From NCBI RefSeq assembly GCF_007994225.1, contig NZ_VLLL01000005.1:1783142-1847141 (forward strand): a stretch of DNA of 64,000 bases. The letters run 5' to 3'. Below the pieces are notes generated by a model. The model saw only the letters and a program-made list of their open reading frames with translations. It had not been told where the DNA came from and did no database searches. The position numbers and the translations under genes are program-made. Below, piece after piece: positions 8,553-23,927 of this stretch. Positions within the stretch are counted from its first letter, which is position 1. Every line of letters starts with the position of its first letter. This stretch comes from Stackebrandtia albiflava (GTDB lineage Bacteria; Actinomycetota; Actinomycetes; Mycobacteriales; Micromonosporaceae).

Positions 8553-9878
8553 TCAACCGGTGGCGGCGGGCGCCGTCTCGGGCGGGAGGCAGTCCATGAA
8601 GGACGACACGGAGAACACCGCGTTGCCCGCGCCGGGCGGGCCGTAGCCGGGCGGGCTGGTGAGCCCGTTGCGTTCCATGGTGGCCTGGTACGCCTCCAGC
8701 AGCCGAATGTGGTACTCCAGCGGCGCACCCTGCGGATTGGTCTTGCCCAGTGGCGTGGTCGGCTCCGGGCACCAGGTGGTGAACCGGGGGGTGATACCGC
8801 GGGACATGAAGTACTCCAGTCCCTCGGTCGTGGACTCGATCGCCTCGTTCACCGTCGTGAAGCCGAACGGTGCGGCCATCTCCACGCCCGCCACGAAGTT
8901 CGGGATGACGTTGCGGGGGCCGAACACCTCGGCGGACTCCAGGATGCGGCGGTGCCACTCCTCCCGGCCGACGTAGCGTTCCTTGCCGGGGCAGTACAGC
9001 TCGAACAGCCGCTTGTCCCAGACCTCGTAGTTGGGGTGGTAGATGCGGATCCCGTAGTCGTGGAAGCGTTGCACGTCCTCGCGGGGCAGCGCCTGTGCCA
9101 CGACCTTGCCGATCCAGCGTCCGGGGAACCGCTCCTCGATCGCCTTGGCGTACCGGCCGTAGAAGTCGGCCTCGCCCAGGCCGTCGACCTTGGAGGTGAC
9201 ACTGCCGCCGGTCAGCGTGTAGGCGCGGGAGGCGCCGAGGGTGTCGTGCCGGTCGATGATCTCCATCGCCTCCAGCACCTCCTCGACCGGCTTGACCCCC
9301 GTGTACGGGCGCCCGGCGGCCTTGTGCTGGCGCCAGTTGTGGTTGATGTCGCAGTACTGGCACTCCTCCTTGGCGCCGAAGTACTGGCAGACCCGGAACA
9401 CCGTCAGGTAGATCAGGTAACCCCACTGGATCGTCGGGGCCACCTCCATCACCGACTTGCCGTTGCCGAGGGTGTGACGGTAGTACTCCGGCATCGGGGG
9501 AAGCCCGACGTCGGCGATCGGCCGGCCGTCGAGGAACAGCCGCAGCGCCCCGTCCGCGTCGGCCTGCACCCGGTACGGCGAGTCCGGGTTGGTGCGCACC
9601 GACACCACGGTGCGGCGCAGGTCGTAGGGGCCGCCGGTGAGGACGACCTCCTCCGGCGGGCGACGCAGTGCGGCCGTCCCAAGTTCGGGAAGGGTGCGGT
9701 GGTCGAACGAGAAGATGAAGTACGACTTGGGTTTGACCTCGCCGTCCTCGTTGTCGGTCAACGCCGAGTCGTCGAAGGCCATGCCGCCTCGCAGCAGGTC
9801 CTCCTTGATGACGGCCTCCTTCGGCACGCCGGGGAACCGGGCCATCAGGTCCTCGATGAGATCCGTGCGGTTCTGCAT
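8553..9878 (-). CDS. Radical SAM protein with CX8CX2C cluster motif
   Basis: 441 residues; the start at ATG 9878 follows GGGAGG, and an upstream extension to 9911 lacks support. The cluster motif is C164-X8-C173-X2-C176, followed by D-I-N-H-N, instead of the canonical CX3CX2C. I recall a similar long spacing in the biotin-synthase-related MSMEG_0568 group, so it may be a distant member. After it come a TLTGGS segment (about residues 220-230, the usual GGE-like SAM site) and a TIM-barrel-like pattern ending with CPEPTTPLGK. The first 160 residues form an unusual extra domain. No C-terminal SPASM cysteine cluster. It converges with the deacylase gene and lies 190 nt beyond the PIG-L gene, separated by a hairpin. 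Substrate unknown. Confidence 0.75.
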   Translation of the reverse strand: MQNRTDLIEDLMARFPGVPKEAVIKEDLLRGGMAFDDSALTDNEDGEVKPKSYFIFSFDHRTLPELGTAALRRPPEEVVLTGGPYDLRRTVVSVRTNPDSPYRVQADADGALRLFLDGRPIADVGLPPMPEYYRHTLGNGKSVMEVAPTIQWGYLIYLTVFRVCQYFGAKEECQYCDINHNWRQHKAAGRPYTGVKPVEEVLEAMEIIDRHDTLGASRAYTLTGGSVTSKVDGLGEADFYGRYAKAIEERFPGRWIGKVVAQALPREDVQRFHDYGIRIYHPNYEVWDKRLFELYCPGKERYVGREEWHRRILESAEVFGPRNVIPNFVAGVEMAAPFGFTTVNEAIESTTEGLEYFMSRGITPRFTTWCPEPTTPLGKTNPQGAPLEYHIRLLEAYQATMERNGLTSPPGYGPPGAGNAVFSVSSFMDCLPPETAPAATG

Positions 9879-10068: not shown

Positions 10069-10758
10069 TCACAGGGTGTCGGTGACCGACGGGTTCGCCT
10101 TGCTCGCGAAGGCGCAGGCCCGCTGGACACCTGCCAGGCAACCCTTCGCCCGCATCAGCGAGGTGTAGTAGTCGATGTACATGAAACCGTAGGTCTCGCC
10201 CCGCGCGAACGCGTGCACCTGGATCGCGTCGTACCAGGCGTCGAAGGCCTCGTCCGGGATGGAGACGTACCGGTCGGGCCGGAAGTCGTCCTGGTCCTCC
10301 CAGTTCTCCGCGTACACGAAGGTGGAGACGCCGTGCCGGGGAAGCTCGTGGTCCATCGGCAGTCCCGCGTAGAACCTGGCCTGCTCGGCGATGATCGAGG
10401 CGTTGCGGTGATCGGAGTGGATCGACTCGTTCCAGTGCGCGATCACGACGTCCGGCTTGAGGTCGCGGATGATGTCGGCGACCCGCAGGTGCACCTCCAG
10501 CTCCGGCTGCAGGAAACCGTCGGAGTGCTCCAGGACGGTGAACTCCGCGCCGATCTTCTCGGCGAAGGTGCGCCCCTCGGAGATCTTCTGCTCCTTGTAC
10601 TCCTCCGGGGACAGCCGGGGGTGGCCCCGCTCGCCGGGGGTCAGCGCGAGCAGCGCGGTGCGGTGCCCGGCCATCGCGGCGGCGGTCAACACCGGCCCGG
10701 CGGTCAGGTCCATGTCACCGATGTGGGCGCCGATGGCGAGATAGGTCTTCTTGGACAC
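10069..10758 (-). CDS. PIG-L (LmbE) family protein with altered AHxxD motif
   Basis: 229 residues; GTG start with GAGGTAA upstream, 8 nt after the second permease. PIG-L proteins are zinc N-deacetylases acting on GlcNAc-type substrates (MshB, PIG-L). Here the zinc motif reads A-H12-I-G-D15-M-D instead of A-H-P-D-D-E, so the two zinc ligands at the N-terminus remain but the position of the general-base Asp is Gly. The third ligand is probably H117 in HSDHRN. Other members with A-H-x-G-D exist to my memory, often next to sugar ABC importers. It may be a deacetylase with a different base, or a hydrolase for another bond. Context: last gene of the GNAT-ABC operon, so it probably acts on the imported sugar. 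Confidence 0.8.
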   Translation of the reverse strand: MSKKTYLAIGAHIGDMDLTAGPVLTAAAMAGHRTALLALTPGERGHPRLSPEEYKEQKISEGRTFAEKIGAEFTVLEHSDGFLQPELEVHLRVADIIRDLKPDVVIAHWNESIHSDHRNASIIAEQARFYAGLPMDHELPRHGVSTFVYAENWEDQDDFRPDRYVSIPDEAFDAWYDAIQVHAFARGETYGFMYIDYYTSLMRAKGCLAGVQRACAFASKANPSVTDTL

Positions 10759-10766
10759 GGATTACC

Positions 10767-11639
10767 TCATTTCAGTCCGCTGAGCATCATGCCGCGGATG
10801 TAGTACTTCTGAAGCAACAGGAAGACGAGCAGCACCGGCAGGGTGCTGATCACGAGACCGGCCATGACGATCGGCTGGGTCAGGTTGGGATCCAGGTAGC
10901 TCTGCAGCAGTTGGATGCCCACCGGCAGGGTCATCAGGTCGGGGTTGACGGTGGAGACCAGCAGCGTCCAGATGTACTCGTTCCAGACGTTCACGAAGGT
11001 CAACAGCCCCAGGGTGATCAGCGCGGCCTTGGTCTGCGGCACCACGATGCTCCACCAGATCCGCAGCTCGCCCGCGCCGTCGATGCGGGCCGCCTCCAGG
11101 ATCTCGTCGGGGATCGCCACCACGAACTGCCGCATCAGGAACACACCGAATCCCGACACCAGGAACGGCATGAACAGCGCCGCGTACGTGGTGAGAAGGC
11201 CACCGTAACCGCCGGCGCCGAACAGGTCGTTGCCGCCGGCTCCCGGCCAGTTGGCCAGGATCAGGAAGTTCGGGATGAGGAACAGGAACGGCGGGAACAT
11301 CATGGTGGCCAGCACGAACCGGAACAGCACCGCCCGGCCGCGGAACCGCAGTTTGGCGAGGGCGTACCCGGCGAGGCTGGCCGTCAGCAGTGTCGAGAAC
11401 ACCGCGACGCCGGTCATGAGGATGCTGTTGGCGAACAGCCTCGGCATGTCCAGTTGGGAGAACGCCGCGCCGTAGTTGGCGAAGTCGAAATCCTCCGGCA
11501 GGAACCGGTACGGCAGCCGGCCGAACTCGCCCGGCCCCTTGAACGAGGTGAACACCATGTCGAGGAACGGCACCACCATGATGAGGGCACCGACGGCGAC
11601 CAGCAGATAAGAGAACCACGGGAACCTGCGGGGCTTCAC
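10767..11639 (-). CDS. Sugar ABC transporter permease, MalG type
   Basis: 290 residues. I start at GTG 11639 because it overlaps the stop of the first permease (GTGA) and has GGGAGAGGAG upstream. Six membrane helices are evident; the cytoplasmic EAA loop (EAARIDGAG near residue 205) contacts the ATPase. C-terminal sequence is typical of CUT1 inner-membrane permeases. The operon contains no ATPase, so as in many actinomycete CUT1 systems it probably uses a shared MsiK-type ATPase encoded elsewhere. Confidence 0.9.
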   Translation of the reverse strand: MKPRRFPWFSYLLVAVGALIMVVPFLDMVFTSFKGPGEFGRLPYRFLPEDFDFANYGAAFSQLDMPRLFANSILMTGVAVFSTLLTASLAGYALAKLRFRGRAVLFRFVLATMMFPPFLFLIPNFLILANWPGAGGNDLFGAGGYGGLLTTYAALFMPFLVSGFGVFLMRQFVVAIPDEILEAARIDGAGELRIWWSIVVPQTKAALITLGLLTFVNVWNEYIWTLLVSTVNPDLMTLPVGIQLLQSYLDPNLTQPIVMAGLVISTLPVLLVFLLLQKYYIRGMMLSGLK

Positions 11640-12595
11640 GACGTCTCCTCTCCCTTCCGGCGGAAGAACCACAGCTGCAGCAGCGTGATGACGAAGATGA
11701 CGGCGAACAGCACGAGCGCCATCGCGCTCGCCACGCCCCACGAGCCGAACCGGAACGCCTGCTGGTACATCTCGAACCCGGCGACGTTGGTGGCGTTGGC
11801 GGGACCGCCGCTGGTCATGACGATGATCAGCGCGAACGACTGCAACGCGCCGATGAACTGCGTGATCATCACGAACAGCAGGGTGGGCCGCAACAGCGGC
11901 AACGTGATGTGCCAGAACGCCGACCACGCGGTGGTGCCGTCGAGCTCACCGGCCTCGTAGTAGGTGTGCGGGATCGCCTTGAGGCCGGCGGTCAGGATGA
12001 GGATCGCCGAACCGATCGAGGCCCACGCCTGCACGACCACCACCGAGGGCAGCGCCGTGTCGGGGTCCGACAGGAACTGCACCGAGGAGATGCCCACCGC
12101 GTTGAGGAGCCCGTTGATCAGGCCGCCGCCGGGTTCGTACAGGTACTTCCAGATGTTGCCGACCGCCACGACGGTCGTCACGATCGGCAGGAAGTACAGG
12201 GTCCGCCAGAACCCCTCGAACCGCAGCCGGGTGATGGCGTGCGCGATCGCCACCGACGCCACAAGCGCCAGGGCGACCGCACCGAACGCGAACAGCAGCG
12301 TGTTGGTCAGGATCGGGGCGACGAACGACGAGCCCTCGCTCAGGATGGCCCCGAAGTTGTCCAGGCCGGTGAACTCGATGCGGGTCAGGTCGAAGCCGCC
12401 CCACACCGACAGGGACAGGCCGATCGCGAACAGCAGTGGCAGGACCAGGAAGATCCCGAAGAACAGCAGGGTGGGCGACAGGAAGAACCACGCCGCCCAC
12501 GCCTGCCGGCGCCGGGACTTCGCCAGCGAACCGCGCCGGGACCGCTTCGAGGCGGTGGGCGCGGTCGCCGGGGACGACCCGTTGAGCGTCGTCAT
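11636..12595 (-). CDS. Sugar ABC transporter permease, MalF type
   Basis: 319 residues from ATG 12595, 4 nt after the binding-protein stop, with GAGGGA upstream; a GTG at 12610 inside the previous gene is the alternative. A basic N-terminus precedes six membrane helices, and the EAA loop (EAGELDGTTAWSAFWHITLP near residue 215) is conserved. It pairs with the MalG-type permease to form the transmembrane pore of a CUT1 importer in the cytoplasmic membrane. Confidence 0.9.
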   Translation of the reverse strand: MTTLNGSSPATAPTASKRSRRGSLAKSRRRQAWAAWFFLSPTLLFFGIFLVLPLLFAIGLSLSVWGGFDLTRIEFTGLDNFGAILSEGSSFVAPILTNTLLFAFGAVALALVASVAIAHAITRLRFEGFWRTLYFLPIVTTVVAVGNIWKYLYEPGGGLINGLLNAVGISSVQFLSDPDTALPSVVVVQAWASIGSAILILTAGLKAIPHTYYEAGELDGTTAWSAFWHITLPLLRPTLLFVMITQFIGALQSFALIIVMTSGGPANATNVAGFEMYQQAFRFGSWGVASAMALVLFAVIFVITLLQLWFFRRKGEETS

Positions 12596-12599
12596 CGGG

Positions 12600-13889
12600 C
12601 TATCCCTCACTCAACGCCGCATCGGCCGCCGCCGCGGCGGCGGCCAGCGCCTCCTCGACCGTCTGTTGGCCGGTCCACACCGCCTCGATGCTGCCCTGGA
12701 GGGAACTCTTCATCTCCTGTCCGTTGCGGCCGTTGGGTTCGGGGGCCGCGTACTCCAGTGCCGCCACGAAGGGGTCGAAGTTGGGGTCGTCGATGGTGCC
12801 CGCCAGCGCCTCGCTGTCGGCCATCCGGCCGGGGATGGTGCCCAGTGAGAACTGGAAGCTGCCCATCCGGGTCGCGCCGTTGTCGCCCTTCTCACCGTTG
12901 AGCCACTTCAGGAACTCCCAGGCGTCGTCCTGGCGTTCGCTGCGGGAGTTGACGCCCGCGAAGTAGCCGTACGCCATCGAACCGGTGTCGCCCACCTCGG
13001 GGCCGGGGATCTCGGCGACTCCGATGTCCTCGTAGTCGTCGCCCATGGTCGTCTTGAGGCTGCCGATCCACCAGCCCGCGTTGATCGTCATGGCGGTGGT
13101 GCCGCTGGGGAAGGACTTCAGGACGTCGATCGCCGGGTCGGCGACGCCGTCGTCGATCATGCGCTTCTCCAGTTCCAATGCCGCGCGGCCCTCCGGGGAG
13201 TCGAAGGCGGTGGCGGTGCCGTCCTCGTTCATGTACCGGCCGCCCGCCGACTGGAGCAGCGAGACCCACGGGTGGACGACCGCGGAGTCCCAACCGCTGG
13301 TCAGGCCGAAGCCGGCGACCTCGATGTTCCCGGAGTCGTCACGCTTGGTGGTGGCCGCGGCGATCTCCTCCAGTTCCTCCCAGCTGCTGGGCGGGGCGTC
13401 GTATCCGGCTTCGGCGAGCAGGCGCTTGTTGTAGTAGAGGCCGTAGGTCTGCACCTCGGTCGGGTAGCCGACGATCCGGTCGTCGACGGTCACGGATCCG
13501 ACCGCCGCCGGTGAGTAGTTGTCACGCACGTCCTGGGCGACGTCCTCCGGGACCTCCGCGAGTACGTTGGCCTCAGCGAGCTGTCCACCCCACAGGCTGT
13601 AGGCGTGGACGATGTCGGGCGCCTCGCCGCCGGTCTGCCGGACGGTGATCGTCTGGAGCAGTTCGTCGAACGACACTGCCTGGGTCTCGACCTGGAGGTC
13701 GGGATTCGCCGCGTTCCACTCGTCGACCATCTCCTGCAACCCCGACTTCAACGGGTCGTTGGCGTAGTGCGTGAGGATGGTGAGGGTGTCGCGGGCGCCG
13801 CCCTCGTAGTTGCTCGTGGTGCATGCCGAGGCGCCGAGCAGCAGCACTGCCGCCGTCGCCACGACTCGCGCGGTGGCGCGGGTCTTCAT
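12600..13889 (-). CDS. Sugar-binding lipoprotein of ABC importer
   Basis: 429 residues. The signal peptide ends in the lipobox LGASAC (Cys at residue 23), so the protein is anchored outside the membrane. The mature part has the family-1 extracellular solute-binding fold (WNAANPDLQVE near residue 58, YYNKRLLAEAG near 150, WEFLKWLNG near 325). It shares four bases with the GNAT stop upstream and is followed by two permeases. The ligand cannot be read from sequence; the shared operator with the NamZ-RpiR operon suggests a cell-wall amino sugar or muropeptide sugar. Confidence 0.9.
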   Translation of the reverse strand: MKTRATARVVATAAVLLLGASACTTSNYEGGARDTLTILTHYANDPLKSGLQEMVDEWNAANPDLQVETQAVSFDELLQTITVRQTGGEAPDIVHAYSLWGGQLAEANVLAEVPEDVAQDVRDNYSPAAVGSVTVDDRIVGYPTEVQTYGLYYNKRLLAEAGYDAPPSSWEELEEIAAATTKRDDSGNIEVAGFGLTSGWDSAVVHPWVSLLQSAGGRYMNEDGTATAFDSPEGRAALELEKRMIDDGVADPAIDVLKSFPSGTTAMTINAGWWIGSLKTTMGDDYEDIGVAEIPGPEVGDTGSMAYGYFAGVNSRSERQDDAWEFLKWLNGEKGDNGATRMGSFQFSLGTIPGRMADSEALAGTIDDPNFDPFVAALEYAAPEPNGRNGQEMKSSLQGSIEAVWTGQQTVEEALAAAAAAADAALSEG

Positions 13890-14857
13890 GACTGGTCCTT
13901 TCGGGGGTGGAGGGGGGCGCGCATGACGTCGAAGGTGCGGGTGATGGTGAAGCCGGTCTTGAGGTAGAGGTGACCGGCGGGCGACTCCCTACCGGTCCAC
14001 AGGAACCAGGCGTTGTGGGCGCCCAGTGCCCGCATGCGTTCGAGGCAGAGGTGCAGCAGGACCTCGCCCAGTCCGAGGCCCCGGCGGTCGGCGAGCACGC
14101 CGAACGGGCCGAAGCGGTCGATGACGGACTCGTAACCGGCGCACATGCCCCATCCGATGACGCGTCCGCCGGGGGCGCGGGCCACCACGATGCGGTTCAG
14201 CGGGATGCCCGCGACCGCGGCCTCGCGGATGGCGCGCGCCCAGTCCGGGTTGAACTCCTCGTGGGCCAGGCGGATCAGCGGCACCAGTTCGTCGGCGTCG
14301 GGTGTGCCGAAGGTGTAGCCGTCGGCGGTGAGGGCGGCGATCCGGTCGCGCACCTTCTCGGGGATCGTGTGGCCGACCAGGTTCATGTCCATGGCGGAGG
14401 CGCGGTAGAGCGTGCGGAAGCCGCGGCTCTCCAGCAGGCCGGCGGCCTCGGGGTGGCGCTCTCGGTCGATGCCGGGCTGGATGTAGTTGGGCGTGTACGA
14501 GGAGAAGTCGGCCTGTCGGCGGCCGTGGCCGCGCAGCCAGTCGAGGGCCTCGTCGAGGAGGCGTCCGCCGATGCCGCGTCGGCGGTGCGCCGGGGTCGTG
14601 AACAGGAACGGGATCCAACCCTGCTCGGGTTCGAGGTCGTCGGCGGTCATGGCGACGGTGCGTCGTACCGCGTAGACGGCTCCCACGATCTCGTCGCCGT
14701 CGTGTGCGATCCGGAGACCCTCGGGGTCGAAGTTGGGGTCCAGGAGGACGAGCCTGCGGAACCGTTCCTCGGTGATGGGATCGCCTGGAACGCTCTCGTT
14801 CCACGCGGTGACCAGTCGATGACCCATGCCGACGTCGAAGCCGGTCGTGACAACCAT
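13886..14857 (-). CDS. Tandem-GNAT N-acetyltransferase
   Basis: 323 residues from ATG 14857, with AGGAG 10 nt upstream. Two GNAT folds are arranged in tandem: the first has the acetyl-CoA loop RRRGIGGRLLDEAL near residue 90, the second R-R-G-L-G-L-G-E-V-L-L near residue 265, so both could bind acyl-CoA. It transfers an acyl group to an amine; the substrate is unknown. It is the first gene of the operon that encodes a sugar importer and a PIG-L protein, so N-acetylation of an imported amino sugar, opposed or preceded by a deacetylation step, is plausible. Tandem GNAT plus PIG-L recalls mycothiol enzymes MshD/MshB, but the context is transport. Confidence 0.8.
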   Translation of the reverse strand: MVVTTGFDVGMGHRLVTAWNESVPGDPITEERFRRLVLLDPNFDPEGLRIAHDGDEIVGAVYAVRRTVAMTADDLEPEQGWIPFLFTTPAHRRRGIGGRLLDEALDWLRGHGRRQADFSSYTPNYIQPGIDRERHPEAAGLLESRGFRTLYRASAMDMNLVGHTIPEKVRDRIAALTADGYTFGTPDADELVPLIRLAHEEFNPDWARAIREAAVAGIPLNRIVVARAPGGRVIGWGMCAGYESVIDRFGPFGVLADRRGLGLGEVLLHLCLERMRALGAHNAWFLWTGRESPAGHLYLKTGFTITRTFDVMRAPLHPRKDQS

Positions 14858-14888
14858 GGCGGAAAACTCCTGAAGGTGCCGATATTGA

Positions 14889-14923
14889 GTTGGAAAACTA
14901 CCAACCTGACGCGGAAACGTCAA
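14889..14923 (-). promoter_or_regulatory. Promoter with 17-bp dyad before the GNAT-ABC operon
   Basis: On the minus strand, TTGACG (14923-14918), a 17-bp spacer and TAGTTT (14900-14895) form a good vegetative promoter. The dyad GTTGGAAAACTACCAAC (14889-14905) covers the -10 element. It matches the dyad before namZ at 12 of 17 positions with the same promoter layout, so it is the likely operator of the RpiR regulator encoded next door. Confidence 0.7.
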
Positions 14924-15082
14924 TGATTGTCTTAACAAGTGGATCTCCCGATGACGGGACCCCTCCGAGGCTCCACTTCGCGCAGGCACGGATACCCGAC
15001 CACACTGGATATGCAGCTCTTTCCGGCGGCACGCGGTGGCCGTCGGGCGCGAAGGACGGGACTCTCGGCCACGCGGCAGCGC

Positions 15083-15112
15083 GCCGTGCCCGTGACGACT
15101 CACGGGCACGGC
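15083..15112 (-). terminator. Hairpin after the RpiR gene
   Basis: Perfect 13-bp stem (15083-15095 with 15100-15112), 4-nt loop, 49 nt past the RpiR stop. It separates the namZ-RpiR transcript from the GNAT operon, which therefore depends on its own promoter. Confidence 0.7.
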
Positions 15113-15160
15113 ATCACCCTCGGTGGTAATTCACCAACGCGACGGCGGAGGAACCCGGGG

Positions 15161-16066
15161 TCACTGCCGCCGGGTGGAGTCCTCCGGGTGCACGACCTGG
15201 TGGGTACGGGTCAGCGCCTGCAACGTGGCGTCGTAGGACCGTTGCGCCATACCGAGGAAGACACAGTCCACGACGGCCAGTTGCGCGAGGCGGCTCGCCA
15301 TCGCGCCCGAGCGGAACCGGGTCTCGCGCACCTGCGTGGTGATCACCAGGTCCGCGTGACGGGTCAGCGGCGAGCGCGGATAGTTCACTATGGCCACCGT
15401 CGTGGCCCCGTGGTCGCGCGCGACCCGCAGGTACGCGACCACTTCGGAGGTCTCACCGGTGTGCGACAGTCCCACCGCCACGTCCTCGGCCGACAGCAAC
15501 GCCGCGGTACCGAGCGCCAGGTGTGAGTCGGCGATCGCCAGCGCGATCCGGTCGACCCGCAGCAGCTTGTGTTGTAGGTCCTGAGCCGCGAAGGCACTGG
15601 CGCCCATACCGAACAGGCTTATCCGCCGCGCCGCCGACAGGGCCGTGATCACCCGGTCGAGCTGCCCGATGTCCAGGTGTTCCATCGTCTCCTGGATCGC
15701 CCGCACGTCGGCGAACGCGACCTTCCGCACCAGCTCCTGCAGGGTGTCGTCCCGGTCGATGTCGGTCCCGGGCGTCAGGCCGCCGTCCGCGCGGGCCTGG
15801 TCGGCACCGAGCTCGGTGGCCACCGCGAGCCGTAGTTCGGCGTAGCCCCGGAATCCGGCGCGACGGCAGAACCTCACGACGGTGGTCTCCGACGTGCTGC
15901 ACCGTTGGGCGAGTTCGGTGATGGTCGTGGACACCACCAGACGGGGCTCGGCGGTGATCGCGTCCGCGACGCGACGCTCGGCCGGCGCCAACGTCGGTGC
16001 GAGGCCGCGAATGTGCTGGACGACCGACGACCGCTGTCGCGCCGGATTGCCGAAGTCGCCGGTCAT
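15161..16066 (-). CDS. RpiR/MurR-type transcriptional regulator (HTH + SIS)
   Basis: 301 residues from ATG 16066; GTG 16090, which overlaps the NamZ stop as GTGA, is an equally possible start. The N-terminal HTH_6 domain (about residues 15-90) has the typical recognition helix region STSETTVVRFCRRAGFRGYAELR. The C-terminal SIS phosphosugar-binding domain (about residues 125-270) has GMGASAFAAQDLQ and GLSHTGETSEVV. Members such as MurR sense MurNAc-6-phosphate. Being co-transcribed with namZ, and with matching dyads before both operons, it is the likely local regulator, responding to a phosphorylated amino sugar. Confidence 0.9.
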   Translation of the reverse strand: MTGDFGNPARQRSSVVQHIRGLAPTLAPAERRVADAITAEPRLVVSTTITELAQRCSTSETTVVRFCRRAGFRGYAELRLAVATELGADQARADGGLTPGTDIDRDDTLQELVRKVAFADVRAIQETMEHLDIGQLDRVITALSAARRISLFGMGASAFAAQDLQHKLLRVDRIALAIADSHLALGTAALLSAEDVAVGLSHTGETSEVVAYLRVARDHGATTVAIVNYPRSPLTRHADLVITTQVRETRFRSGAMASRLAQLAVVDCVFLGMAQRSYDATLQALTRTHQVVHPEDSTRRQ

Positions 16067-16086
16067 GTCAACCGCGTTCACGAGTG

Positions 16087-17286
16087 TCACTCGTACATGA
16101 GAACATCCGCGCCCGCCCAGTCGCGCGGGTGCCCGATGTCCACCGAATCCAGCAGGGCCACCGGATCCCCGCCGGAGTCCAATGTCGCCCGCAGATTCTC
16201 GGATCCCCACAGCAGGTCGACGGCGGGTCGCCCGCTGGAGTGTTCCTCACCGCTGTGCTTCGGCCGCCAGCCGAAGCCGTCGGGGTACAGGTCGCGAAGT
16301 TCCCGCAGCATAGTCAAGGCGGTGCGGACCGGCTGGAAGACAGCCCGGTCGGTCAGGTGCAGTTGCACCCCCCGAACCGCGGTGCCGGCGTGCTTGTGGA
16401 ACGTGGGCGCGAACGAGACGTCACGGAACCGCACGCCCGGAAGGCCCAGCGAGTTCAGCCGTACCGCCCAGCGGCCGTCGACGTAGGGCGCGCCGATCAG
16501 TTCGAACGGCCGGGTGGTGCCCCGGCCCTCCGACAGGTTCGTCCCCTCGAACAGACCGGTCCCCGGATACACGACCGCACTGTCCAGTGTGGGCATGTTG
16601 ACGGAGGGCATCACCCAGGGCTGGCCGGTCAGGTCGGCCATGTCGCCGCGCCGCCAGCCCGTCGCGGCCACGACCGACAGGTCCGCGGAACGCCCGGCCA
16701 CCGCCGGGATCTCGGTGTCGTTGAGGTGTCGGGCCAGTTCCCCCACCGTGAGTCCGTGCCGGATCGGAATCGCGGTGCGCCCGACGAAGCTCGACACGGC
16801 CGGGTCCAGCAGCGGTCCCTCCGCCACCGTGCCGCCGATCGGATTGGGCCGGTCGAGGACGACGAACCGGGTACCGGTGCGCGCGGCGCTCGCCAGCAGG
16901 TCGAACATCGTCCAGATGTAGGTGTAGAACCGGGTGCCGATGTCCTGCAGGTCGTACAACAGCACCTCGACGTCGGCGGAGCGCACCAGGTCGTCGAGCC
17001 GGTCGCCCTCGTGCCGGTAGGTGTCGTAGAGCGGCAGGCCCGTGTCGGGGTCGGCGGTGTCGGGCTCGCTCTCACCGGCCTGCGTGGTGCCGCGCAGCCC
17101 GTGTTCGGGCCCGAAGAGCGCCACCAGCGGCACCCCCGCCTCCCGTAGCGCGGTGACCGAGGTGCGCAGGTCCCTCACCACGCCGGTGTAGTTGGTGATC
17201 ATCCCGATCCGGTCTCCGGCGACCAGGCCGGGATCGGCGCACAACCGCTCGACTCCGGTGGAAACGACTTGTCGCGGCTGGCTCAC
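16087..17286 (-). CDS. namZ: NamZ-type exo-beta-N-acetylmuramidase (DUF1343)
   Basis: 399 residues from GTG 17286, with AAGGAG five nt upstream. Family hallmarks: FGPEHGLRG near residue 77, YDLQDIGTRFYTYIWTM near 120, RPNPIGG near 158, and NMPTLDSAVVYPGTGLFEGTNLSEGRGT near 240-267 (quoted in parts: NMPTLDS, YPGTGLFEG, NLSEGRGTTRPFE). NamZ proteins release terminal N-acetylmuramic acid from peptidoglycan fragments. No signal peptide is visible, so it may act inside the cell on imported fragments, unlike exported homologues. It shares its transcript with an RpiR/MurR-like regulator. No MurNAc kinase or MurQ etherase lies nearby. Confidence 0.88.
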   Translation of the reverse strand: MSQPRQVVSTGVERLCADPGLVAGDRIGMITNYTGVVRDLRTSVTALREAGVPLVALFGPEHGLRGTTQAGESEPDTADPDTGLPLYDTYRHEGDRLDDLVRSADVEVLLYDLQDIGTRFYTYIWTMFDLLASAARTGTRFVVLDRPNPIGGTVAEGPLLDPAVSSFVGRTAIPIRHGLTVGELARHLNDTEIPAVAGRSADLSVVAATGWRRGDMADLTGQPWVMPSVNMPTLDSAVVYPGTGLFEGTNLSEGRGTTRPFELIGAPYVDGRWAVRLNSLGLPGVRFRDVSFAPTFHKHAGTAVRGVQLHLTDRAVFQPVRTALTMLRELRDLYPDGFGWRPKHSGEEHSSGRPAVDLLWGSENLRATLDSGGDPVALLDSVDIGHPRDWAGADVLMYE

Positions 17287-17315
17287 GGAATCTCCTTCGT
17301 AGGACACGACAGATG

Positions 17316-17351
17316 GTAGATAAATTACCTACGTCAAGCCGCATTCGTCAA
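17316..17351 (-). promoter_or_regulatory. Promoter with 17-bp dyad before namZ
   Basis: Minus-strand TTGACG (17351-17346), 18-bp spacer and TAATTT (17327-17322). The dyad GTAGATAAATTACCTAC (17316-17332; 7 of 8 arm positions pair) covers the -10 element, exactly as in the GNAT promoter. Probable RpiR operator. A second TTGACG lies inside the spacer. Confidence 0.7.
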
Positions 17352-17468: not shown

Positions 17469-19754
<2,286 letters not shown>

Positions 19755-20726: not shown

Positions 20727-23700
20727 TCAGGAGCGGGCCAGCACCACGACGTCGGCCGGCGTCCACTCCCCCGCCACCCGGCATCGCAACACCAGCAGTG
20801 CCCGAGCGGCACCGCGCAGCGACGAGGCGGCCTCGGCGAGCCGTGCGGCCGACTCCGCCGGAACCGTCCCGGTGAGTCGGTCCATCGCCGCGGCGGCCGC
20901 GTACATCCCGAGCCCGGCGCACCGTGCCGCGGTCTCGTCGTATCCGGCCCTGCGGCGCAGGAAGGGGTCCGTCAACACGGCTGCCTCCTGGATGACCCGC
21001 ACCGCCATGGGCGACATGGTGTCGGTGGGATCGGCGCGTGCCACGGCGGTGGCGATGCGTTCCGCGCGGCGGAGGGCCGCCGGGACACCGTCGGGATGCA
21101 GGTGGTCGGCTTCGGCGGTCGTTGTCGAGGCGAGGAAGTCGTCGAACCCGTCACTCGCCTCGGCGGCCCCCGCCACGTCCGGCTGTTCCAACCACCGTGC
21201 CGTCAGCAGCAGCCACGCCCGGATCGCCAGCAGTTCGGCCCGCCCCAGACGTTCGGGGACGGCGCCGATCCGGGTGAGCAGTCGCACGAGTGACGTCTCG
21301 GAGACTCTGCCCACGTCGGAGTCGGCGGCGCGGCGCCACAGGTCGGTGGACGTCGGCCGCAGAAACCTGTGCCGGGCCAGGACGTAGCTCAACGCCGCCG
21401 CCACGTGCGGTTCGGTGTCGTCGGATTCGTCGTACGCCTGCGCGAAGCCGTAGGCGTGGGTGAAGTTGACCGTGTGGTCGAAGCGGTCGGTGAACTCCCC
21501 GTCGGAGGCGACGCCGCGGTGATACGCCAGCGCGATCATGAGGAACACGCCGAGTTCCCTGCGGTCCGCCAGCACCCCGTCACGCCACCTGTCGGCGCCG
21601 ATCCGGAACGGGTCCGCCGCGCCGGGTGCGAGGAACAGGTCCACGCCGCGCGGCCCGGTCCCCCACACCGGCCGGGTCGCGGCGTCGAGCACCAGCCGCA
21701 CCGCCGGATCGGCGAGTTCGGCCCAGGTGGGGAGCCGGTAGGCGGTCCCGTCGTCGAAGAAGGAGTTGACCCACGCGACGAACCTGCGGACGTCGCCGGC
21801 CCAGGCGCCGTGGACCGGGGCGAGCGGGTCGGCGGCCGGACGCGCGTCGGCGGCGGGCCGGCGTCCGTCCCGGCTCATGTCCGCCTGGAACAGCCGCCAC
21901 AGACCGTCGTCGACCGGCCGACCGCACAGTTCCACGTCCCCGGACAACCGCACGGTCTCGTGCAGGTCGTGGGAGATGCGCACCGCCGCCACCAGCGCCC
22001 GTCCGTCGTCGTCGGTGGGCGGAGTCCCGTTCAACAGGTCGTCGAGCTGGGCACGCAGCCGCGGGTCGAGTTCCCTGGGCCGCTTCGCGCACTCGAAGGC
22101 CAACGCGAGCGCGTGCACCGATCCCGACCGCAGGCACGTCTCGACGACGGTCGAGGCGTCGGACGCCTCGGTCCACAACAGGATGGTCTCCCGCCACCAC
22201 GGGTCGTCGATGCGCGCGGACAGCGCGTCGTCGGCGGGGCCGTCGGCCAGCTCGGTGGACGCCAGGTACTCCTGGAACGTCAGGTGCGGGAACGCCACGA
22301 GGTCGTCCCGCCGCACGATCAGCGTGCCGCCCTCGACCAGGTCGGCCAGGCACTCCTCGGCGGTCGCCTCGACCGGGATGCGTTGCAGCGTCTCCGACAG
22401 CACCCGGAGCGCGAGCGGCGTCGCCAGCGACTTCACCCGCGACTCCATCATCATGATCGCCAGCCTTCGCGCCAGCAGGCCCTTCTGCCCGATGGTCAGG
22501 GTGGAGTCCCCGACGCCCTTCTCGTCCCGGCGGCGGGAGAGCAGCATCTCGCACATCTCGCGGTACAGCTCGGCGCGGCTCCCCGGGAGCGCGCCCCGGT
22601 ACCGGTGGACGTTGGCGATCATCGTCAACAGCAAGGGGTTGGACGCCAGGTCGTACAGCGCGGGCCGACGGCGCATCCGCTCCATCAGGGCCTCGGCCTC
22701 CCGGTGCGCCCGCGCCCGGACCTGTTGACCGGTCTCGCCGGTGCTGCGGCTCTCCGACACGTGGTACCACCGGTGCAGGAACGCCGCGATCTGGTCCGAG
22801 GTGAAACCGCGGATGTGCAGCCGCGTCGTGTTGCGCAACGCGTTGTCGTCGTATCCGTGGGGACGGGACGTCACGACGTACACGTTGTCCTCGTACCGTG
22901 CGATCTGATCGGTCAACCAGTCGGCCACCTTGCGTCGCGCCTCGGCGTCGCCGGTCTCGTCGAGCCCGTCGCACAGGACGAGGCAGTTGCCGCGCTCCAG
23001 GCGACGTCGTAGCCAGGCGGCCGGAACCCTGCCCGCCAACCAGGCGGTTCCGGCGACCAGGTCCGCGACGTCGGGCGGCTCCTCGGCGTCCACGACGGCC
23101 TCCGCGTGGTCCCGCAGGGTCAGCAGCACCGGCAACCTTCCGCGCCGCAGGACACCGCGACGCGCCCCGGTGGCCGCGGCGTGGCGCAGCAGTGAGGTCT
23201 TGCCGGCTCCCGGGTATCCCGCGACGGTGAAGACCCTCGCGTCGGTGCCCTCGATGAAGTGCGCCAGCGGTCGGCGCTCCCCCGGTTCCCAGCGGGTGTG
23301 CAGGCCCTCGGCCACCACGGAGGTGGCGCGCGGATCGAGGCTGACGTCGACATAGACCTCCGGGAGCCACAGCGCGAACGGCCCCTGTGTGGTGAGACCG
23401 TGCAGTTCGAGTTCGCGGGCGTGCCGCCGGATTCGTTTCACGAAGGTGCGGCGGTGCCCGAGCAGCGCGGCGCTCAACACCGAGTCCGCAGAGTCGGCGA
23501 TGCGCTGCACCCAGCGGTCGGCGACGTCGCCACCGACTCGGCCGACGAACCGCAGCACCGCCAGGGCGGCCCAGTAGGCCGCCAACGCCAGGACGCTCTC
23601 CAGCGGGTTGGCGGCGATGGCGTCCCAGAACTGGGTCGCGATGATCCCCGGAGGCGCTAAAGCCAACAGCGCCAGCAGGGAGGTCGCGATCACCTCGCTG

Positions 23701-23741
23701 GGTGAGGCCGGGTTGGGAGGGGGAACGGGCAAATTCGACAT
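20727..23741 (-). CDS. NACHT-domain NTPase with N-terminal membrane helices
   Basis: 1004 residues from ATG 23741, after GAGGTGA. Two hydrophobic segments (about residues 18-36 and 48-66) come first, then a helical region, then the NACHT core: Walker A GYPGAGKT (175-182), Walker B with LVLCDGLDETGD (about 250-262), a SRP sensor segment and LTFQEYLAS near 470. The C-terminal 500 residues are helical without recognisable repeats. STAND NTPases of this kind act as signalling switches, and some bacterial NACHT proteins defend against phages. No recognised effector domain is seen, and no typical defence neighbours. Could equally be a developmental or membrane-stress regulator. Confidence 0.85.
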   Translation of the reverse strand: MSNLPVPPPNPASPSEVIATSLLALLALAPPGIIATQFWDAIAANPLESVLALAAYWAALAVLRFVGRVGGDVADRWVQRIADSADSVLSAALLGHRRTFVKRIRRHARELELHGLTTQGPFALWLPEVYVDVSLDPRATSVVAEGLHTRWEPGERRPLAHFIEGTDARVFTVAGYPGAGKTSLLRHAAATGARRGVLRRGRLPVLLTLRDHAEAVVDAEEPPDVADLVAGTAWLAGRVPAAWLRRRLERGNCLVLCDGLDETGDAEARRKVADWLTDQIARYEDNVYVVTSRPHGYDDNALRNTTRLHIRGFTSDQIAAFLHRWYHVSESRSTGETGQQVRARAHREAEALMERMRRRPALYDLASNPLLLTMIANVHRYRGALPGSRAELYREMCEMLLSRRRDEKGVGDSTLTIGQKGLLARRLAIMMMESRVKSLATPLALRVLSETLQRIPVEATAEECLADLVEGGTLIVRRDDLVAFPHLTFQEYLASTELADGPADDALSARIDDPWWRETILLWTEASDASTVVETCLRSGSVHALALAFECAKRPRELDPRLRAQLDDLLNGTPPTDDDGRALVAAVRISHDLHETVRLSGDVELCGRPVDDGLWRLFQADMSRDGRRPAADARPAADPLAPVHGAWAGDVRRFVAWVNSFFDDGTAYRLPTWAELADPAVRLVLDAATRPVWGTGPRGVDLFLAPGAADPFRIGADRWRDGVLADRRELGVFLMIALAYHRGVASDGEFTDRFDHTVNFTHAYGFAQAYDESDDTEPHVAAALSYVLARHRFLRPTSTDLWRRAADSDVGRVSETSLVRLLTRIGAVPERLGRAELLAIRAWLLLTARWLEQPDVAGAAEASDGFDDFLASTTTAEADHLHPDGVPAALRRAERIATAVARADPTDTMSPMAVRVIQEAAVLTDPFLRRRAGYDETAARCAGLGMYAAAAAMDRLTGTVPAESAARLAEAASSLRGAARALLVLRCRVAGEWTPADVVVLARS

Positions 23742-23927
23742 GATCACCTCATCCGGGTCGAATCAGGTCCTTTCAGATGCTAACCGGTGCTGTCACGCCT
23801 CGTCGGCGCCTCGATACGCCGCGCGGTGGTGGCCGGTGTGGCCGCCGGGGCCGGAGTGGGGCGTCGTGCCTGGTGAGGTCCACATTTCAGCTCCGCGCGG
23901 TCCGATCCGGACTCTAGGCTCTCGGGC

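What the first reader, a model, noticed from the sequence alone, without database searches (positions are those of the whole stretch)
10069..17351. Probable amino-sugar salvage regulon: NamZ, RpiR/SIS regulator, tandem GNAT, CUT1 importer and PIG-L protein under one operator
Two adjacent minus-strand operons each have a promoter TTGACG-N17/18-TARTTT with a 17-bp dyad covering the -10 box (14889-14905 and 17316-17332; 12 of 17 bases identical). A MurR-like RpiR regulator is encoded in the same block with a NamZ exo-muramidase. The second operon imports a sugar and adds an acetyltransferase and a PIG-L homologue. Known murein recycling sets (MurQ, AmgK, NagZ) are absent, so this looks like a different route, perhaps import followed by deacetylation or reacetylation.
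Basis: partly seen in the sequence, partly recalled or inferred. Interest (0 to 1): 0.78.

Follow-up and report, generated by a model that had tools for sequence, protein, structure and literature searches.

The report
Import-first cell-wall sugar salvage regulon
This stretch of a soil actinobacterium's genome holds a switch-controlled gene set, shared with distant spore-forming bacteria, that probably imports bits of bacterial cell wall and takes them apart inside the cell, using an unusual pair of enzymes whose exact reaction is still unknown.

Summary
NamZ, an RpiR/SIS regulator, a tandem GNAT, a CUT1 importer and a PIG-L protein lie in two minus-strand operons. The two promoter dyads are where stated; a third, weaker one follows rpiR.

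The set recurs. In 80 PIG-L loci from Actinomycetota and Bacillota, GNAT is nearby in 74, NamZ in 48 and MurQ in 36. In a sample of 246 genomes, PIG-L and GNAT occur in the same 10. The operator recurs beside cassette genes in five further genera and tracks similarity of the regulator.

Two corrections. MurQ, NagA, BadF-family proteins and an exported NagZ-like GH3 are elsewhere in this genome, so "recycling genes absent, hence a different route" fails. And cassette NamZs (with most linked GH3 and AmiE-like proteins) lack export signals, whereas most sampled ordinary NamZs show them: saccharides are probably imported first and cleaved in the cytoplasm.

By profile the GNAT is closest to amino-sugar N-acetyltransferases. 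The PIG-L lacks the catalytic-base Asp of known family deacetylases. Best model: import, cytoplasmic cleavage, C2-N-acyl editing by PIG-L plus GNAT, then kinase, MurQ and NagA. The PIG-L reaction is inferred. A new variant of MurNAc salvage.

The parts
17322..17351 (-). Promoter 1: TTGACG (17351-17346), 18-bp spacer, TAATTT (17327-17322)
   Evidence: read; same layout upstream of namZ in G004/L034; not found by the sigma-70 scan
17316..17332 (-). Operator 1, dyad GTAGGTAATTTATCTAC over the -10 of the namZ-rpiR operon
   Evidence: relatives, matrix test
16087..17286 (-). namZ, exo-beta-N-acetylmuramidase family, without export signal (likely start GTG 17286 with AAGGAG; first possible start 17307)
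   Evidence: PF07075 230.7 bits, PF20732 158.8 bits; no signal peptide; tree
15161..16090 (-). RpiR/SIS regulator (MurR-like)
   Evidence: PF01418, PF01380; below the curated cut-off of the MurR equivalog model
15122..15138 (.). Third, weaker operator-like dyad GGTGGTAATTCACCAAC just after rpiR
   Evidence: 2 mismatches; 0.27 such matches expected in the window
15083..15112 (.). Perfect 13-bp hairpin with 4-nt loop between the two operons, no T run
   Evidence: not called a terminator
14895..14923 (-). Promoter 2: TTGACG (14923-14918), 17-bp spacer, TAGTTT (14900-14895)
   Evidence: read; conserved in G004 and G015; not found by the sigma-70 scan
14889..14905 (-). Operator 2, dyad GTTGGTAGTTTTCCAAC over the -10 of the GNAT operon
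   Evidence: identical 17 bases in G004
13886..14857 (-). Tandem GNAT, GlmA/RmNag-like amino-sugar N-acetyltransferase (by profile)
12600..13889 (-). CUT1 solute-binding lipoprotein (lipobox GASAC seen by eye)
   Evidence: PF01547 135.4 bits
11636..12595 (-). CUT1 permease 1
   Evidence: PF00528
10767..11639 (-). CUT1 permease 2
   Evidence: PF00528
10069..10758 (-). Atypical PIG-L/LmbE protein, motif AHIGDMD (Gly where family deacetylases have the general-base Asp)
   Evidence: PF02585 75.1 bits

Best explanation
An import-first MurNAc salvage regulon. The RpiR/SIS protein (inferred repressor, released by a MurNAc- or GlcNAc-6-phosphate) binds 17-bp dyads over the -10 boxes of two operons. 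The CUT1 importer (an Opp-type peptide importer in some relatives) brings in unphosphorylated peptidoglycan saccharides. A cytoplasmic NamZ, helped in relatives by NagZ-type GH3 and AmiE-like proteins, releases the sugars. The GlmA-like GNAT acetylates sugars that arrive with a free C2 amine, and the atypical PIG-L removes a non-acetyl C2 amide so that the GNAT can put acetyl there. The resulting MurNAc goes to a BadF-type kinase, MurQ and NagA encoded elsewhere. Shown by computation: gene set, conservation, operators, lack of export signals, presence of MurQ, NagA and BadF-family genes. Inferred: ligand, imported substrate, kinase specificity, and the reactions of GNAT and PIG-L.
For: Of 80 PIG-L loci, counting hits over 60 bits within 10 kb: GNAT in 74, NamZ 48, CUT1 SBP 48, RpiR 39, MurQ 36, AmiE-like 19, OppA 12, GH3 11, AnmK 8 (MurQ hits 47-55% identical). 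PIG-L and GNAT occur in the same 10 of 246 genomes, and all 10 have a MurQ match (9 over the curated cut-off, G240 at 295.9 against 302) against 79 of the other 236 (Fisher 5e-18 and 3e-5, not corrected for kinship: 8 of the 10 are one family). MurQ is divergent from the cassette in G015 with an operator between them, and in both Microlunatus loci a weaker site lies between divergent murQ and namZ. Operator matrix: 19 near hits against 0.075; score tracks RpiR similarity (rho 0.45 in 43 loci outside training). None of 58 cassette NamZ frames shows an export signal by a simple hydropathy test, while 21 of 24 ordinary ones do (20 by hydropathy, L013 by eye); one 100/99 branch separates the two sets. 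The GNAT profile's best structures are 5kga/5kf1 and 4zm6; 29 of 30 carry a PxYxxPGxD loop like the insert of RmNag.
Against: No ligand, binding or expression data. Six of 80 loci lack GNAT within 10 kb, and one of the 74 (L145) has only a 26% identical one, so PIG-L need not always work with a linked GNAT. Of the 9 other class genomes with the pair, only 5 show NamZ in the fetched locus. In Kribbella the operator is present but no RpiR lies within the locus. The PIG-L lacks the general base that deacylation normally uses. A single-sequence search with the GNAT gave only antibiotic and uncharacterised acetyltransferases. In this genome GH3, BadF-family genes and MurQ are unlinked, and no exact operator match lies near MurQ. 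The SBP resembles many sugar binders, with no specific match.
Confidence: 0.6

Rival explanations
1. The PIG-L is a lyase or hydratase rather than a deacylase, for instance a MurQ-independent lactyl etherase acting on unphosphorylated MurNAc.
For: General-base Asp replaced by Gly in 79 and Ala in 1 of 80. By single-sequence search its best solved relative is 5cgz, named 4-oxalmesaconate hydratase, which also lacks that Asp (read from the alignment); by profile 5cgz is second to 6p2t, a GlcNAc-malate deacetylase. [quoted passage not shown]
Against: All 14 genomes with the pair that I checked have a MurQ match, and MurQ is often in the same cluster, so a replacement is not needed. It does not explain the tight tie to the GNAT.
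Confidence: 0.12
2. The PIG-L/GNAT pair makes or remodels a GlcN-containing metabolite (mycothiol-like), and NamZ linkage is incidental.
For: MshB/BshB are PIG-L proteins and MshD is a tandem GNAT (recalled); the MshD and BshB1 models hit weakly, far under their cut-offs.
Against: Linkage with NamZ, GH3, AmiE-like, MurQ or AnmK in 69 of 80 loci and 22 of 25 genus labels; among the 40 most widespread neighbour families printed I recognised no ligase or glycosyltransferase by eye (they were not annotated); MshD is not among the 16 structures matched by the GNAT profile.
Confidence: 0.08
3. A generic sugar importer operon placed next to NamZ by chance.
For: SBP and permeases score far below every specific NCBIfam cut-off; the SBP is found in only 3 of 81 relatives at E 1e-60.
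Against: The same importer with GNAT and PIG-L recurs beside NamZ in Kribbella, Leifsonia, Microbacterium, Cohnella and Paenibacillus, and the operator recurs.
Confidence: 0.06
4. The cassette handles free external MurNAc after cleavage outside the cell, as in the Bacillus subtilis paradigm (recalled), and the cassette NamZ is exported by a non-classical route.
For: The genome also has an ordinary NamZ with an export signal next to a GH3 with one.
Against: None of 58 cassette NamZ frames in two phyla shows a signal; 9 of 10 linked GH3 frames and 12 of 19 AmiE-like frames have no room for one (by eye).
Confidence: 0.14

Closest known systems
Bacillus subtilis NagZ-AmiE-NamZ / MurR-MurQ-MurP recycling cluster (recalled)
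   Same: NamZ, NagZ-type GH3, AmiE-like beta-lactamase-fold protein, RpiR/MurR-type regulator, MurQ
   Different: There the three hydrolases are exported and MurNAc enters by the MurP phosphotransferase (recalled); here cassette NamZ lacks an export signal, an ABC importer stands where MurP would, and a GNAT/PIG-L pair is added
Clostridium acetobutylicum GlmA (recalled) and Rhizomucor miehei RmNag (4zm6, PMC4680927 passages read)
   Same: Tandem GNAT with a PG-containing insert loop; RmNag is fused to a GH3 N-acetylglucosaminidase
   Different: Profile similarity is moderate (E 5e-15 and 6e-13); substrate here untested; whether a PIG-L partner exists there was not checked
LmbE/PIG-L deacetylases (MshB, BshB, Dac)
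   Same: Fold family, His/Asp/His metal ligands conserved
   Different: General-base Asp is Gly in 79 and Ala in 1 of 80
GalB, 4-oxalmesaconate hydratase (5cgz)
   Same: PIG-L family, metal ligands, GERG stretch, non-acidic residue at the base position
   Different: Acts on an aromatic-degradation acid (recalled), not on an amino sugar
Mycobacterial non-E. coli, non-Pseudomonas MurNAc recycling (PMC13041923, abstract and passages read)
   Same: An unknown MurNAc importer and exchange of the C2 acyl group are postulated there
   Different: The pair is not detected in the 18 genomes of family f8 (which I guess to be Mycobacteriaceae) listed, nor in their 216 unlisted rows

Membership tests
NamZ exo-N-acetylmuramidase | NamZ_N and NamZ_C domains | tested here: met
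   230.7 and 158.8 bits against cut-offs 26.9 and 25
NamZ exo-N-acetylmuramidase | Exported enzyme, as in the described recycling system (recalled) | tested here: not met
   No export signal in cassette copies; most ordinary copies sampled have one
NamZ exo-N-acetylmuramidase | Releases MurNAc from the non-reducing end | not testable with these tools
   needs enzyme assay
MurR/RpiR regulator | RpiR HTH plus SIS domain | tested here: met
MurR/RpiR regulator | Curated MurR equivalog score | tested here: not met
   137.1 bits against 408; MurR proper is not claimed
MurR/RpiR regulator | Binds operator near own operon | tested here: inconclusive
   operator conserved and tracks RpiR similarity; no binding data
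GlmA/RmNag glucosamine N-acetyltransferase | Two GNAT domains in one chain | tested here: met
GlmA/RmNag glucosamine N-acetyltransferase | Insert loop with PG in the first domain | tested here: met
   PxYxxPGxD in 29 of 30; aligned with YHFFPGIP of 5kga; loop described in PMC4680927
GlmA/RmNag glucosamine N-acetyltransferase | Acetylates GlcN or glucosaminides | not testable with these tools
   needs assay
LmbE/PIG-L deacetylase | Metal ligands of the HXD1D2+H motif | tested here: met
   H12, D15, H117 invariant in 37
LmbE/PIG-L deacetylase | D1 general base | tested here: not met
   Gly in 79, Ala in 1 of 80; motif from PMC4101496 passages
MurQ-dependent MurNAc catabolism | MurQ encoded in the genome | tested here: met
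   G000:C3:235827-236696, 350.2 bits against 302
MurQ-dependent MurNAc catabolism | MurNAc kinase | tested here: inconclusive
   two BadF-family genes in G000, one 45% identical to the cassette-adjacent copy of G004; specificity unknown

The most novel reading that the evidence does not exclude
The base-less PIG-L is a new enzyme of peptidoglycan salvage that opens an unusual C2 amide of muramic acid (N-glycolyl, or the muramic delta-lactam of spore cortex), leaving a free amine that its partner GNAT re-acetylates: a two-enzyme 'acyl normaliser' that lets soil bacteria feed on foreign cell walls. The substrates are my proposal; nothing here tests them.
Probability: 0.25. Interest if true: 0.75.

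Novelty: new variant of a known kind. Interest (0 to 1): 0.6.

Why it matters
It would show a MurNAc salvage layout, in two phyla, in which wall saccharides are imported first and cleaved inside. It gives concrete candidates for steps that a 2026 preprint on mycobacteria leaves open (a MurNAc importer, exchange of the C2 acyl group), though in other bacteria. It also flags a PIG-L subgroup, likely to be annotated as a deacetylase, that lacks the catalytic base, with a partner gene that makes its function testable.

Tried and rejected
Rejected: PIG-L as a replacement of MurQ or NagA (a MurQ match in all 14 genomes with the pair that were checked; NagA in 5 of 5). N-glycolyl muramate as the sole substrate, because the cassette is also in Paenibacillus and Kribbella, whose wall is N-acetyl to my recollection; NamH was not searched. 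Chance neighbourhood, because the set recurs and neither flanking-gene query (radical SAM, terpene synthase) appears in the table.

Led nowhere: fold comparison was switched off, so the two confident models (pLDDT 92.5 and 92.3) were not compared with solved folds. The binding protein gives no ligand hint. No listing shown by my ten paper searches describes this cassette; one search showed 12 of 162, searches found none, and the one hit was not read. The library holds only open-licence papers, so this is weak evidence of novelty. Passages of PMC8035080 and PMC12680351 were read and not used in the argument.

Limits of counts: the 80 loci are the best 80 of 109 confirmed, found through two peptide patterns, one of which contains HIGDMD, and 16 of them are Kribbella. 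Several loci end at contig ends, so counts of neighbours are lower bounds. SBP and permease counts use 60 bits and include some generic importers. Genome searches scored only about 9-11 candidates per genome. The Fisher tests ignore kinship. Ordinary NamZs come only from the window's own order (24 of the loci; the broken copies of G079 left out), not from Bacillota; the tree took at most four cassette rows per genus label. Signal peptides were judged by hydropathy and by eye; of 19 AmiE-like frames 4 have an unclear start and 3 are cut; of 10 linked GH3 frames one (L137) is unreadable; of 6 AmiE-like frames outside the cassette two (L165, L166) show no clear signal. Motif comparisons with GalB and GlmA were read by eye from printed alignments.
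Full report
What is there. None reaches a curated NCBIfam cut-off; the RpiR protein scores 137.1 bits on the MurR equivalog model against 408. The likely NamZ start is GTG 17286, which has AAGGAG before it; the first possible start is 17307.

Operators. The two dyads stand at the stated places and share 12 of 17 bases. In G004, a genome of the same genus, the same two sites recur in front of namZ (GTAGGTAATTTATCAAC) and GNAT (identical 17 bases), with TTGACG 17-18 bp before a TAnnTT box (spacing counted by eye). In G015 there are three, before GH3, rpiR and GNAT; the first lies between GH3 and the divergent murQ. Exact matches to GTNGGYARYTTNNCNAC are only the two known sites in G000, two cassette sites plus two others in G004, and three plus one other in G015; with one mismatch the pattern is not enriched over its reversed control in G000 (11 against 34). 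A third, weaker dyad lies at 15122-15138 in the window. A matrix built from the window, G004 and G015 sites was run over 79 of the 80 later loci (L067, close to a training locus, left out): 19 hits of 16 bits or more lie beside cassette gene starts, 13 in Kribbella and 6 in Streptomyces, Actinopolymorpha, Microbacterium and Phytoactinopolyspora, and 8 elsewhere, all in one tandem repeat of L124; 40 symmetric column permutations averaged 0.075 near and 1.2 elsewhere. Across 46 loci with an RpiR the site score rises with RpiR similarity to the window's (rho 0.55; 0.45, p 0.003 in 43 after dropping three training-near loci). All six loci with RpiR at 55% identity or more score at least 17.4, but three of the six are training or near-training loci and two others are the same genome. 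Kribbella loci keep the site without a linked RpiR. This supports, but does not prove, that this regulator binds the dyads.

Recurrence. G004 has the same gene order; G024 has RpiR-NamZ-GNAT-SBP-permeases-PIG-L; G015 has GH3-NamZ-RpiR-GNAT-PIG-L with MurQ divergent; G052 has GH3-NamZ-PIG-L-GNAT followed by an Opp-type importer. The SBP itself is found in only 3 of 81 relatives at E 1e-60, and NamZ in 27 of 81 at E 1e-20. Among 246 genomes of the class, the PIG-L is found in 10 (E 1e-25) and the GNAT in the same 10 (E 1e-40), from three families, eight of them one family; MurQ is matched in 89, all 10 included, of which G240 is under the curated cut-off. In the 9 other genomes GNAT is beside PIG-L in 9 of 9 and NamZ is in the fetched locus in 5. 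A scan of 84,980 species' genomes kept 80 of 109 confirmed loci, in 25 genus labels of Actinomycetota and Bacillota. Within 10 kb of the PIG-L at over 60 bits: GNAT 74, NamZ 48, CUT1 SBP 48, RpiR 39, MurQ 36 in 13 genus labels, AmiE-like 19, OppA 12, GH3 11, AnmK 8, BadF-type 8; 69 have at least one of NamZ, GH3, AmiE-like, MurQ or AnmK. The six without GNAT are three Kribbella and three Paenibacillus loci; one counted GNAT (L145) is only 26% identical.

Not a MurQ-free route. The genome encodes one MurQ (C3:235827, 350.2 bits), NagA (238 bits against 225.65) and two BadF-family proteins, one 45% identical to the copy beside the G004 cassette. It also has a second NamZ next to a GH3, both with export signals. 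In both Microlunatus loci an operator-like site (15.1-15.2 bits, under the threshold) lies between divergent murQ and namZ, 9 and 28 bp from the murQ frame; it could serve either gene.

Import first. Of 58 cassette NamZ frames (48 of the 80 loci plus 10 window and whole-genome loci, at least four genomes counted twice) none shows a signal peptide: four Kribbella frames pass 1.5 on the hydropathy scale but offer at most 11 residues before the domain. Of 24 ordinary NamZs from the window's order, 20 reach 1.4 and a further one (L013) shows a twin-arginine-like start by eye; L027, L028 and L030 do not. In a tree of 41 cassette and 22 ordinary rows, one branch with support 100/99 separates the two sets; ordinary rows from Bacillota are missing. 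Nine of 10 linked GH3 frames and 12 of 19 AmiE-like frames have no room for a signal, with 4 AmiE-like frames unclear and 3 cut; the five GH3s examined outside the cassette have N-terminal extensions that look like signals (by eye). I conclude that the saccharide is probably imported whole and cleaved in the cytoplasm. In the described Bacillus system (recalled) this happens outside.

The GNAT. A single-sequence search gave three weak hits, the best nourseothricin acetyltransferase. A profile of 30 sequences best matches 5kga/5kf1, named only 'predicted acetyltransferase' (from memory, the C. acetobutylicum GlmA), and 4zm6, the RmNag GH3 fused to a tandem GNAT. Passages of PMC4680927 say that RmNag acetylates GlcN, that its first GNAT domain has an insert loop PRFFPGVPDDDAQ missing in other GNATs, and that acetylation is needed for cleavage of (GlcN)2. 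The cassette GNATs have PxYxxPGxD there in 29 of 30, aligned with YHFFPGIP of 5kga. The model is a confident two-domain GNAT.

The PIG-L. Metal ligands H12, D15, H117 are invariant in 37 sequences, but the residue that a review of the superfamily (PMC4101496, passages read) gives as the general base (an acid in BshB) is Gly in 79 and Ala in 1 of 80. The best solved relatives are 5cgz, a hydratase (E 6e-10 by single sequence), and by profile 6p2t, a GlcNAc-malate deacetylase (E 7e-21), with 5cgz second. So it should not be filed as a deacetylase on sequence alone.

Mechanism. The co-occurrence of the pair, its tie to NamZ and MurQ, and a GNAT that would need a free C2 amine suggest that PIG-L makes that amine from a non-acetyl amide and GNAT restores acetyl before kinase and MurQ. 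Sugars from de-N-acetylated walls would enter at the GNAT. The substrate of the PIG-L is the weakest step. A 2026 preprint on mycobacteria (PMC13041923, abstract and passages read) posits an unknown MurNAc transporter and possible replacement of N-glycolyl by N-acetyl; this cassette is a candidate parts list from relatives, but it was not detected in the 18 listed genomes of family f8, which I guess to be Mycobacteriaceae.

Verdict. A real, conserved and coherent regulon; a new variant of MurNAc salvage with one enzyme of uncertain reaction. Interest 0.6.

Noticed in passing
15122-15138: Third operator-like dyad GGTGGTAATTCACCAAC between rpiR and the hairpin, 265 bp before the GNAT start; could be an auxiliary operator. 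By eye no such site stands at the same place in G004.
   Followed up: partly
17499-19754: Double terpene cyclase with 1172.9 bits on the family 2 encapsulin cargo model (cut-off 1200), divergent from namZ. Whether an encapsulin lies nearby was not checked.
   Followed up: no
8553-9878: Radical SAM protein over the cut-off of the variant_rSAM domain model, downstream of the PIG-L gene; not part of the recurring set.
   Followed up: no
20727-23747: 1006-residue ORF with a GYPGAGKT P-loop and NACHT-like look by eye; no family search made.
   Followed up: no
L144 (Paenibacillus hemerocallicola): Two GNAT/PIG-L copies in one locus, one with CUT1 genes between them and one adjacent pair beside NamZ.
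   Followed up: no
L124:30-403 (Cohnella): Tandem repeat with a 51-bp step at the locus end carrying GTAGTTAAACTACCTAC-like dyads in eight units, not beside cassette genes.
   Followed up: no
L170:9206-12384: BadF-family gene divergent from a second RpiR and a further gene in the window's genome; a related BadF and RpiR pair, with a further gene, sits beside the cassette in G004, so it may be a moved module of the same pathway.
   Followed up: partly
L088, L094, L100 (Kribbella): PIG-L genes without GNAT or NamZ in the locus, two of them (L088, L100) with weak operator-like sites 23 and 43 bp upstream.
   Followed up: no
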